From contig JASMMA010000010.1 in assembly GCA_030748415.1 (NCBI GenBank), positions 1-64,000 on the forward strand: a stretch of DNA of 64,000 nucleotides, written 5' to 3'. A program made the position numbers and the translations under genes. The notes below the pieces were generated by a model, which saw only the letters and a list, made by a program, of their open reading frames with translations, was not told the origin of the DNA and made no database searches. Below are positions 52,612 through 56,175 of the stretch, one piece after another; position 1 is the stretch's first letter; each line of letters opens with the position of its first letter. Source of the DNA: Planctomycetota bacterium (GTDB lineage Bacteria > Planctomycetota > UBA1135).

Positions 52612-54675
52612 TTAGGGAGAAAAACCTAATATTTTCTGGGCCCGCTCGGGGGGTATGGCTGCATAGCCATGAGGGGTCATGGAGAAGGCTCCACGCCCTT
52701 GGGTCAGAGAACGGAGATCGGTGGAATACGAGAACATGGCCTGAAGAGGGGCAATAGCGAATATAACCCTTTGCTCATGACCAACTTCCAAATTTCCAAC
52801 TTCAGCACGGCGGGCGCTCAGGTCGCCCAAAACTCCACTCAAAAACTCCTCCGGCACCTCAACCCGGACCGTCATAACAGGCTCTAGGAGTGTCGTATTG
52901 CCCTGGAGGGCGCCTTCCATTGCTTGGGACGTTGCCGCCATGAGAATCTCGCGCGAAACAGGCTCCGTATCAGGGCTCCAGTGGAGTTTGGATATTTCGA
53001 CTTCCAGCTCGGCGAGGGGGAATCCTAAGTCGCCACCGGACTGCAAGAGACCCTCTGCGCCCTCACGAAAAGCGAGGACTGAAGCCTCTTGAAGCAATGT
53101 AACTTCCTCTGAGAAAAGAACTTCGGAGCGTTTGCCTGGTGTCGGCCGGAGCTTCGCTTGAACCTGAACAACTTGCCGCCCCTCCTCGAGGGGCCTCTCA
53201 ATCGTTCCAGAGCCACCTTTGGCAGAAAGCAGGGTTTCCCGATAGGCAACAATTGGATTTCCAGCTCGGGCAGACACCCTGAAATCCCGCTCCAAGCGGT
53301 GGCGGGCAACTTCAAGGTGAAGCTCACCCATCCCTGCCAGAGTTAATTGCCCCGTTTCCTGGTCAGTCACCAGCTTTAGGGTGGGGTCCTCGCGGCATAA
53401 AGCTAACAGAGCATTCTCCAACTTGTCTCGCTCCCCCATGTTCAGGGGTTCCAAGGTCTGGCGAATCACAGGGTCGGGGAAATGGATCGACTCAAGAGCA
53501 ATGGCCTCACCTTGGTGGAAAAGGGTATCGCCCGTGATTGCGTGCTTAAGACCAGGGACCGCCACAATTTCGCCGGGCCCTGCCTCTTTGAGGCGCTCGC
53601 GGTGATCCGCATGCATCCGCCACAGTTGCTGAGCTCGTTCCTTTTTTTTATGGCGCGCATTCAAGAGTACATCTCCTTCCTTCAGCACACCTGAATAAAC
53701 TCTCAAGTAGCACAAATCTCCGTGTGGATCGTGAAAGAGTTTAAAAACGAAACCAGTAAAAGGAGCCGATTTTTCAGGCGCCCGGAGCAAGCGCTCTGTT
53801 TCGTCTTGAGGAGATACGCCTTCCACGGGTGGGCGTTCAAGCGGCGAAGGCAGCAATGCAAGGATGGCGTCTAGAAGGGGTTGAATGCCCAAATTGTGAA
53901 GAGCAGAGCCACAAAAAGCGGGGACCAACTTTCGCTCCATCACGCCCAACTTGAGGCCCTTCAAGAGCTCTTCTTCACTCAGCGATTCGTTATCCAAATA
54001 CTTTTCTAAAAGTTCGTCGGAAAACCCAGCGACAGCTTCGCAAAGTTGGGTTCGAGCAAGTTCAGCGCGCTGGTGTTCCTCATCGCTAAGGTCGGACTCC
54101 TGAACCGTGGCCCCCTTTTCATTCCGATCCCAGCTGAGACGCTTCATTTTGGGGAGGTCCAAGACACCGTCAAAACTATCCCCTTCTCCGACCGGCAACT
54201 GAACAGGAATAGGGTTTACCCCCGTCCGGTCCTTGAGTGATTCCAATGCAGCTGAAAAATCCGCGCCAGGTCGGTCCATTTTGTTCAAAAAGGCTATCCA
54301 AGGAACAGAGTTCTCAGCAACCTGCCGCAGCACCGTTTCGGTTTGTGCTTGCACACCAGCCACCCCACAAAGGACAACGACGGCACCATCTAAAACTCTT
54401 AATGAGCGGCTGACCTCCACGGTAAAGTCCACGTGCCCCGGAGTGTCAATTATTTGAATCACCGAGTCTCTCCATGGGCAACGAGTCGTTGCCGCCATGA
54501 TGGTGATTCCACGCTCTCTTTCTTCGGGCATCCAGTCCATCACGGTATTCCCTTGATGCACTTCCCCCATACGATGCTCAACGCCAGTGTAGAAGAGAAT
54601 CCTCTCCGTTACGGTCGTTTTCCCGGCATCAATGTGGGCAACAATCCCCACATTTCGAAGGTTGGCCAAGTCCAT
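52612..54675 (-). CDS. fusA: Elongation factor G family protein, domain IV resembling mtEF-G2/spdEFG2 (recycling-type)
   Basis: NVGIVAHIDAGKTTVTERILFYTG, ERERGITIMAATT, DTPGHVDFTVEVSRSLRVLDGAV, NKMDRPGADF; domain IV GGSGTIERPLEEGRQVVQVQAKLRPTP lacks the usual HxKQSGGxGQ loop. Confidence 0.93.
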   Translation of the reverse strand: MDLANLRNVGIVAHIDAGKTTVTERILFYTGVEHRMGEVHQGNTVMDWMPEERERGITIMAATTRCPWRDSVIQIIDTPGHVDFTVEVSRSLRVLDGAVVVLCGVAGVQAQTETVLRQVAENSVPWIAFLNKMDRPGADFSAALESLKDRTGVNPIPVQLPVGEGDSFDGVLDLPKMKRLSWDRNEKGATVQESDLSDEEHQRAELARTQLCEAVAGFSDELLEKYLDNESLSEEELLKGLKLGVMERKLVPAFCGSALHNLGIQPLLDAILALLPSPLERPPVEGVSPQDETERLLRAPEKSAPFTGFVFKLFHDPHGDLCYLRVYSGVLKEGDVLLNARHKKKERAQQLWRMHADHRERLKEAGPGEIVAVPGLKHAITGDTLFHQGEAIALESIHFPDPVIRQTLEPLNMGERDKLENALLALCREDPTLKLVTDQETGQLTLAGMGELHLEVARHRLERDFRVSARAGNPIVAYRETLLSAKGGSGTIERPLEEGRQVVQVQAKLRPTPGKRSEVLFSEEVTLLQEASVLAFREGAEGLLQSGGDLGFPLAELEVEISKLHWSPDTEPVSREILMAATSQAMEGALQGNTTLLEPVMTVRVEVPEEFLSGVLGDLSARRAEVGNLEVGHEQRVIFAIAPLQAMFSYSTDLRSLTQGRGAFSMTPHGYAAIPPERAQKILGFSP

Positions 54676-54686
54676 GTCCCTAGATT

Positions 54687-55151
54687 CTAAGCTCCGAGGA
54701 GCTCGGAATTCAGGTCAAGCCACTCCTTTCTCCAGCGATAGCCATCCAAAAGAGAATCATCTCGTTTTCCTAACATGCAAAGTGCTGCATGGAGGGCTTC
54801 AATACTGGCAAGACCATTTTGTGGGTCTTCAAATATTTTTGACTTTCTGGGATAGGCAGTTTGAAGCTCGGGTGGAAGGCTGCGATATCGCAAATCCCCC
54901 TCAACCCAGTGGAGGACTCGAGGCAAATCCCGCCACGAGGAGTCCACCAAAAGCAAAGGTCGGTCTGCATCTTTTGGGGTTAAGGGCTCACCTTCGGGGT
55001 GGAGCAAAGTCACCTCTCCAACGGGAATGGAGTCCCCCAAATCACAATGAAACCACCGAATCCCAGCTCGCCCACTCTCCCTTAAAGGGGTCAAGCTGCA
55101 CTTTTTAGGGTTCTCTTTATTTAAGCGAACAAGGACAAGGTCCAATTCCAT
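54687..55151 (-). CDS. Tsr3-like (DUF367) putative rRNA aminocarboxypropyltransferase
   Basis: NPKKCSLTPLRESG ~ DPKRCSGKKL; LLHPEGEPLTPKD...LLLVDSSW ~ PDD...VVECSW; RSLPPELQTAYPRKS; GLASIEALHAALCMLGKRDDSLLDGYRWRKEWLDLNSELL ~ RLNCVEALAACFAIVGRMDYASELLSHFSWGMGFLELNKELL of yeast Tsr3 (recalled). Confidence 0.78.
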   Translation of the reverse strand: MELDLVLVRLNKENPKKCSLTPLRESGRAGIRWFHCDLGDSIPVGEVTLLHPEGEPLTPKDADRPLLLVDSSWRDLPRVLHWVEGDLRYRSLPPELQTAYPRKSKIFEDPQNGLASIEALHAALCMLGKRDDSLLDGYRWRKEWLDLNSELLGA

Positions 55152-55167: not shown

Positions 55168-55207
55168 TAAAAAAAAGAGCGGGCAACCCCTAAAGGAATT
55201 GCCCGCT
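55168..55207 (-). terminator. Strong intrinsic terminator between rpsG and the Tsr3-like gene
   Basis: 9-bp stem AGCGGGCAA/TTGCCCGCT followed on minus strand by CTTTTTTTTAATAG. Confidence 0.9.
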
Positions 55208-55224: not shown

Positions 55225-55701
55225 TTAGAAGGAGGCGAAGTGGCTGAATGCCTTGTTGGCTTCGGCCATCTTGTGGACATTGTCTCTCCACTGGACAGAA
55301 GATCCTGTGTTGTTGCAGGCATCTACAAATTCCATGGAAAGGCGACGAGCCATAGGCATACCCTTTTTCTTCCGAGCATTACCAACCAACCAACGAATAC
55401 CCAATGCTTGAGCCCGCTTAGCGCTGACTTCTCTGGGCACCTGATAGTTGGAGCCACCAACTCGCTTGGAGCGAACTTCAACGGATGGCTTCACATTTTC
55501 TAAAGCGGTCACGAAGACATCTTCTGGTGTGGTATCTTCAAGTTTCTTCGAGGCCATTTCACAGGCTTCATAGAAGATATCCATAGCGGTTGATTTCTTA
55601 CCACCGAGCATGAGCTGGTTGATAAATTTCATCGCCAACTCAGAGCCGAAACGGGGATCTGGCTGTAGATACTTAGCAGTGGACTTGTAGCTTCTTGGCA
55701 T
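55225..55701 (-). CDS. rpsG: 30S ribosomal protein S7
   Basis: LAMKFINQLMLGGKKSTAMDIFYEA; ALENVKPSVEVRSKRVGGSNYQVPREVSAKRAQALGIRWLVGNARKK. Confidence 0.98.
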   Translation of the reverse strand: MPRSYKSTAKYLQPDPRFGSELAMKFINQLMLGGKKSTAMDIFYEACEMASKKLEDTTPEDVFVTALENVKPSVEVRSKRVGGSNYQVPREVSAKRAQALGIRWLVGNARKKKGMPMARRLSMEFVDACNNTGSSVQWRDNVHKMAEANKAFSHFASF

Positions 55702-55703
55702 GA

Positions 55704-56075
55704 CTACTTACCGCGGCGTGTGCCGTACTTGGAGCGGGAACAGGTCCGTCCATCGACACCCGAAGCATCCAATGTGCCTCGGATTACATGGTATCGAACA
55801 CCGGGAAGGTCACGAACTCGACCACCACGAACCAACACGATGGAGTGTTCTTGAAGGTTATGTCCTTCGCCACCAATATAGGCAGTGATTTCCTTTCCAT
55901 TGGAAAGGCGGACACGGGCGACTTTACGAAGTGCCGAGTTCGGCTTCTTCGGGGTCATCGTCTTCACCTGGGTACAAACGCCGCGCTTTTGAGGGCAACG
56001 GTCAAGTACCGGGCTCTTAGACTTTTTCCGCATGGGCTTACGGCCTTTGCGAACGAGCTGATTGATGGTTGGCAT
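55704..56075 (-). CDS. rpsL: 30S ribosomal protein S12
   Basis: [96 protein letters not shown]. Confidence 0.98.
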
Positions 56076-56175
56076 TTTGTGTTTTGGTGCCTTCACACCC
56101 CAAGGGGGGTAGGGGCAAAAGGGTCTAAAAGTCTAGCGATTTAGTCGTTTTGGTCAAGTCTGGGTATTCAGCAGC

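What the first reader, a model, noticed from the sequence alone, without database searches (positions are those of the whole stretch)
54687..55151. Bacterial Tsr3-like (rRNA acp-transferase family) gene embedded in the str operon between rpsG and EF-G
The 154-aa product lines up by eye with eukaryotic/archaeal Tsr3 over its full length: NPKKCSLTPL, LLLVDSSW, R-SLP...AYPRKS, and a C-terminal block GLASIEALHAALCMLGKRDDSLLDGYRWRKEWLDLNSELL. Established: Tsr3 transfers the aminocarboxypropyl group of SAM to the hypermodified pseudouridine in helix 31 of 18S/archaeal 16S rRNA. I know of no described role in bacteria. Co-location with rpsL/rpsG/EF-G suggests small-subunit rRNA modification or maturation. 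Inference: a bacterial acp3U/acp-pseudouridine at the position equivalent to E. coli 966.
Basis: partly seen in the sequence, partly recalled or inferred. Interest (0 to 1): 0.86.

Follow-up and report, generated by a model that had tools for sequence, protein, structure and literature searches.

The report
Bacterial Tsr3-like RNA-modifying enzyme gene
A planctomycete carries, between its ribosomal protein S7 and elongation factor G genes, a conserved gene for an enzyme built like the archaeal/eukaryotic rRNA modifier Tsr3; the rRNA letter Tsr3 modifies is not a U in its relatives, so the enzyme must act on another, still unknown, site.

Summary
The gene is real and correctly placed (54687-55151, minus strand, 154 aa). 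It passes the Pfam PF04034 cut-off. Its family profile finds only the two solved Tsr3 structures at significant E-values. Its AlphaFold model (pLDDT 91) matches those two and nothing else at E<=0.001. The Tsr3-type catalytic/SAM motif (D70-SS-W73), S19, R90 and E118 are kept. The family is present in 96 of 101 genomes of the same order and patchy elsewhere in the phylum (61 of 244). In several families of the order it lies between rpsG and fusA. A strong intrinsic terminator separates it from rpsG here, so it probably starts a fusA-linked unit.

The proposed target is not supported. 16S position 966 is G in all 35 gene-carrying and all 51 gene-lacking planctomycetes aligned, most carriers have no U in the helix-31 loop, and an RsmD-like gene is present. 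The window's own 16S is not in its assembly.

Bacterial Tsr3 homologues were already described computationally in 2014 (pc1599 family, TDD superfamily, mostly PVC bacteria). I read this as a member of that uncharacterised branch: a SAM-dependent aminocarboxypropyl transferase acting on a U or pseudouridine elsewhere in rRNA, or in tRNA. New here: the synteny and the exclusion of position 966.

The parts
54687..55151 (-). Tsr3-like (TDD superfamily) acp-transferase-like gene, 154 aa
55095..55106 (-). K16-K17-C18-S19: N-terminal motif shared with archaeal Tsr3 (Vd P-R-K-N-T19, Ss D-P-K-R-C-T); C18 invariant in 48 homologues, K17 at least 90%
54933..54944 (-). D70-S-S-W73: D-x-(S/T)-W motif (catalytic base and SAM-binding Trp in Tsr3/TapT); D70 and W73 invariant in 48 homologues
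   Evidence: motif roles from PMC7026641
54882..54884 (-). R90, invariant; aligns with Vulcanisaeta Tsr3 R91
54798..54800 (-). E118, invariant Glu of the penultimate-helix motif of the TDD superfamily
   Evidence: motif definition PMC4275035
55178..55207 (-). Intrinsic-terminator-like hairpin (13 bp stem, U8 tail) between rpsG and the gene; similar hairpins in many relatives
55225..55701 (-). rpsG (S7), upstream neighbour
55704..56096 (-). rpsL (S12), upstream neighbour
52612..54675 (-). fusA (EF-G), downstream neighbour, 11 nt after the gene

Best explanation
[quoted passage not shown] SAM would bind in the Tsr3 manner, with the acp group presented to the RNA and D70 as catalytic base, and acp would go to N3 of a uridine or pseudouridine in a structural RNA of the translation machinery, giving MTA as by-product. 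The target is not the h31 nucleotide 966. The most likely target is another uridine of rRNA, with tRNA the main alternative. Shown here: family, fold, conserved active-site residues, order-wide conservation, synteny with rpsG/fusA, absence of U966 in relatives. Inferred: the acp chemistry, the RNA class, the site.
For: PF04034 over cut-off; only Tsr3 structures hit by profile and by fold at E<=0.001 (5APG 3.4e-8, TMq 0.74; 5AP8 7.2e-7, TMq 0.62; TapT 9KZ5 only 0.14, TMq 0.50); D70, W73, R90 and E118 invariant in 48 homologues and S19 aligned with SAM-binding T19 of Vulcanisaeta Tsr3; D/E and W roles in acp transfer tested in Tsr3 and TapT (PMC7026641); 96 of 101 related genomes carry it; rpsL-rpsG-gene-fusA order kept in families f1, f2, f7 and f8 of the order; Tsr3-like N-terminal K-K-C-S and C-terminal W...FL.LN blocks absent from DTW/TapT proteins.
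Against: No activity has been measured for any close bacterial member that I could find. One basic position of Vulcanisaeta Tsr3 (K22) is not kept (P22) and the N-P motif is replaced by Y100-P-R. Outside the order, and in f5/f6 within it, the gene is not in the str cluster (neighbours gcpE, a PTPS-domain gene, adk). A terminator separates it from rpsG. No rRNA position separates carriers from non-carriers, so the rRNA claim has no direct support.
Confidence: 0.72

Rival explanations
1. It is a tRNA acp3U transferase (for example U47, U20 or U20a/b) that replaces or complements TapT.
For: In bacteria the only proven TDD enzyme found in the papers read, TapT, acts on tRNA (PMC7026641, PMC6895100). 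The window's family f1 has no DTW/TapT protein in the genomes tested, so the tRNA niche could be free. The PDB fold search also lists tRNA methyltransferases weakly, as expected for SPOUT folds.
Against: At least a dozen planctomycetes carry both this gene and a full DTW protein (for example G028, G032, G038, G056, G058, G126, G150, G168, G198, G211, G224, G225, G312), which argues for separate substrates. The N-terminal Cys zinc module of TapT is lacking. Location beside rpsG/fusA.
Confidence: 0.33
2. True Tsr3 function: acp on the helix 31 nucleotide equivalent to E. coli 966.
For: Tsr3 fold and motifs; ribosomal gene neighbourhood.
Against: 966 is G in 35 of 35 carriers and 51 of 51 non-carriers; the loop 963-970 has U only at 965 (3 of 35) or 968 (6 of 35); RsmD-like protein present.
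Confidence: 0.02
3. RNase or non-catalytic assembly factor for ribosome maturation, as first predicted for the TDD superfamily.
For: Original prediction of Burroughs & Aravind 2014 (PMC4275035); conserved acidic residues; ribosomal neighbourhood.
Against: Members of the superfamily have since been shown to be acp transferases (Tsr3, TapT, DTWD1/2), and the SAM-site residues are kept here.
Confidence: 0.06
4. acp modification of a protein, for example EF-G encoded next door (a diphthamide-like idea).
For: Only the 11-nt spacing to fusA and its conservation in the order.
Against: The characterised TDD enzymes act on RNA; diphthamide acp transfer uses a non-standard radical reaction (PMC6302742).
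Confidence: 0.02

Closest known systems
Archaeal/eukaryotic Tsr3 (18S/16S rRNA acp transferase; 5APG, 5AP8)
   Same: Fold over nearly the full length, D-x-(S/T)-W, S/T19, R91 equivalent, KKC(S/T) N-terminal block, C-terminal W...F...N block.
   Different: 22-29% identical in the structural alignments; K22 lost; N-P motif replaced by invariant Y-P-R; separate group in a rough tree; equivalog cut-offs not reached; target nucleotide U966 absent in relatives.
pc1599 family of bacterial TDD proteins (Burroughs & Aravind 2014)
   Same: Bacterial TSR3-like proteins mainly of the PVC superphylum, found from TSR3 searches; no tested function.
   Different: No pc1599 sequence was available to compare directly; the str-cluster synteny was not in the passages read.
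TapT/YfiP and DTWD1/DTWD2 (tRNA acp3U transferases, PF03942)
   Same: Same superfamily, D-x-(S/T)-W core and the conserved helix motif with Glu.
   Different: PF03942 far below cut-off (12.2 against 33.7 bits); no N-terminal zinc module; weaker fold match; separate long branch.
RsmD (m2G966 methyltransferase)
   Different: Different family (TIGR00095), present as a separate gene in these genomes.

Membership tests
Tsr3 (rRNA acp transferase, PF04034) | PF04034 match above curated cut-off | tested here: met
   30.9 against 29.9 bits; 43 of 48 relatives match at E<=0.01
Tsr3 (rRNA acp transferase, PF04034) | Tsr3 fold | tested here: met
   pLDDT 91.4; Foldseek 5APG E 3.4e-8, 5AP8 7.2e-7
Tsr3 (rRNA acp transferase, PF04034) | D-x-(S/T)-W catalytic/SAM motif and S/T19 | tested here: met
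   D70, W73 invariant; S19 aligned with T19
Tsr3 (rRNA acp transferase, PF04034) | Equivalog-level score (NF002621 152 bits, NF053630 300 bits) | tested here: not met
   44.2 and 31.5 bits
Tsr3 (rRNA acp transferase, PF04034) | N-terminal PF04068 (RLI) match | tested here: not met
   No match; the model is argued to be artificial for Tsr3, so of little weight
Tsr3 (rRNA acp transferase, PF04034) | RNA-binding basic residues K17, K22, R91 (Vd numbering; the choice of residues is from memory of Meyer et al. 2016, not held) | tested here: inconclusive
   K17 and R90 kept, K22 replaced by P22
Tsr3 (rRNA acp transferase, PF04034) | Target U/pseudouridine at SSU position 966 | tested here: not met
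   G966 in 35 of 35 carriers; own 16S not in the assembly
Tsr3 (rRNA acp transferase, PF04034) | acp transfer to rRNA | not testable with these tools
   needs biochemistry or mass spectrometry
pc1599 bacterial TDD family | Bacterial TSR3-like, PVC distribution | tested here: met
   96/101 own-order sample, 61/244 phylum sample; other PVC phyla not sampled
pc1599 bacterial TDD family | Closest to Protochlamydia pc1599 in a tree | not tested
   that sequence was not fetched
TDD superfamily | Acidic residue in first loop, DsoW motif, Glu in penultimate helix | tested here: met
   E13, D70-S-S-W73, E118 invariant or nearly so in 48; definition
TapT/DTW (PF03942) | PF03942 above cut-off | tested here: not met
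   12.2 against 33.7 bits
TapT/DTW (PF03942) | N-terminal four-Cys zinc module | tested here: not met
   No N-terminal extension, no CxxC (module described)
TapT/DTW (PF03942) | tRNA U47 substrate | not testable with these tools
   needs biochemistry

The most novel reading that the evidence does not exclude
A core enzyme of a whole order of Planctomycetota puts an acp group on a ribosomal RNA uridine other than position 966, a bacterial rRNA hypermodification not yet described, encoded beside rpsG and fusA.
Probability: 0.42. Interest if true: 0.72.

Novelty: new member of a known kind. Interest (0 to 1): 0.5.

Why it matters
acp modification of rRNA is known for archaea and eukaryotes (helix 31). 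The papers found here describe bacterial acp3U in tRNA only. A Tsr3-fold enzyme kept by nearly all members of a planctomycete order, beside S7 and EF-G genes, but without a U at the Tsr3 site, points to a new acp target in bacterial translation. It can be tested directly by nucleoside mass spectrometry on a carrier strain, with and without the gene.

Tried and rejected
U966 target: rejected from 16S alignments. Search for an rRNA position that is U in carriers and not U in non-carriers: none clean; the best partial ones (16S 955; 23S 519, 740, 757, 2704 and others) are U in 50-75% of non-carriers and may only track phylogeny. Mutual exclusion with TapT: not seen. Phage-borne relatives: none confirmed in viral contigs. 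Simple co-transcription with rpsL-rpsG: made doubtful by the terminator.

Full report
Observation. The ORF at 54687-55151 (-) is intact, starts with ATG and encodes 154 aa. Pfam PF04034 (Ribosome biogenesis protein, C-terminal, the Tsr3 domain) matches at 30.9 bits, just over its curated cut-off of 29.9; the DTW model scores 12.2, below its 33.7 cut-off. NCBIfam DUF367 matches at E=1.6e-11 over residues 4-152, but far under equivalog level. phmmer finds Tsr3 5APG (Vulcanisaeta distributa) at 7.9e-5.

Family. In 41 related genomes PF04034 already rings in 26. A profile built from those hits (A1) finds the gene in 96 of 101 genomes of the same order, and in 61 of 244 genomes spread over the phylum. 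Two relatives in the named collection are Planctomycetes MAGs, 86% and 68% identical. In a 48-sequence alignment E13, C18, L50, D61, D70, W73, R90, Y100, P101, R102, P110, G113, L114, A115, E118, A119, L135 and Y138 are invariant.

Fold and active site. The family profile hits 5APG (4.5e-12) and 5AP8 (3.4e-6), and no other chain significantly. The AlphaFold2 model has pLDDT 91.4 and pTM 0.87; Foldseek gives only the two Tsr3 structures at E<=0.001, with TapT much weaker. D70-S-S-W73 matches the D/E-x-S/T-W motif, whose first residue is the likely catalytic base and whose W binds SAM in Tsr3 and TapT (PMC7026641). S19 aligns with SAM-binding T19 and R90 with R91 of Vulcanisaeta Tsr3; K22 is not kept, and the N-P motif of Tsr3 is replaced by Y-P-R. 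A rough tree separates this group from both archaeal Tsr3 and DTW proteins; with two archaeal sequences it cannot place the root.

Prior knowledge. Burroughs & Aravind 2014 (PMC4275035) recovered bacterial TSR3 homologues, including Planctomyces brasiliensis and Parachlamydia, and named a bacterial pc1599 family mostly of the PVC superphylum. PMC6302742 also mentions Tsr3 homologues in some bacteria. Takakura et al. [quoted passage not shown] Paper searches found no tested function for the bacterial branch, within the library searched.

Neighbourhood. In f1, f2, f7 and f8 of the order the arrangement rpsL-rpsG-gene-fusA is kept in nearly all loci whose contig reaches far enough; in f4 the same genes lie in the same order but further apart; in f5, f6 and outside the order the gene lies elsewhere, for example beside gcpE in f60 and f66, a PTPS-domain gene in f46, and an adenylate kinase in f34. 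In the window a 13-bp hairpin with a U8 tail lies between rpsG and the gene (55207-55178, minus strand; intergenic fold z=-3.55). Hairpins followed by T-runs, matched by at most 1 of 60 shuffles (mononucleotide shuffles, so a mild control), are seen in 13 of 20 f1 loci and three of ten others. The gene is thus likely to be expressed with fusA downstream, with attenuated or separate transcription from rpsG; this is an inference.

Target test. The own assembly has no 16S. 16S sequences of 35 carriers (29 of the own order, 6 outside) and 51 non-carriers, aligned with E. coli, all have G966; C967 is nearly universal; the only U in 963-970 is at 965 in 3 of 35 carriers and at 968 in 6 of 35. RsmD-like proteins are found in the own genome (110 bits, slightly under the family cut-off of 117.5) and strongly in nearly all relatives. 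Hence a 966 acp modification is not supported. No 16S or 23S position is cleanly U in carriers only, which is not evidence against an rRNA target, since a target uridine may be universal. Other carrier lineages could not be checked because their 16S was not found.

tRNA alternative. f1 genomes lack DTW proteins in the sample, whereas several other carriers have both. Co-occurrence argues for distinct substrates, but not conclusively.

Verdict. A well conserved member of a known but uncharacterised bacterial branch of acp transferases. Chemistry likely, target open, position 966 excluded for the relatives tested.

Noticed in passing
window 55178-55207 (-): Strong intrinsic-terminator-like hairpin between rpsG and the Tsr3-like gene; similar hairpins in most loci of the same family. 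Possible attenuation between r-protein and fusA genes.
   Followed up: partly
G023:C18:53872-54328: The gene is split into two frames in one genome of genus g4: frameshift, sequencing error or decay.
   Followed up: no
L219 and L226: In families f66 and f60 the Tsr3-like gene sits next to gcpE (ispG), a second conserved neighbourhood.
   Followed up: partly
genomes of family f30 (e.g. G122, G247, G312): Complete one-contig genomes in which neither the 16S model nor a helix-31 pattern finds a 16S gene, probably withheld sequence or a limit of the first look.
   Followed up: partly
16S of genera g4 and g11 (L031, L032, L040, L044, L051): Helix 31 loop reads GAAGCUACGCG, with U968 in place of A968.
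   Followed up: no
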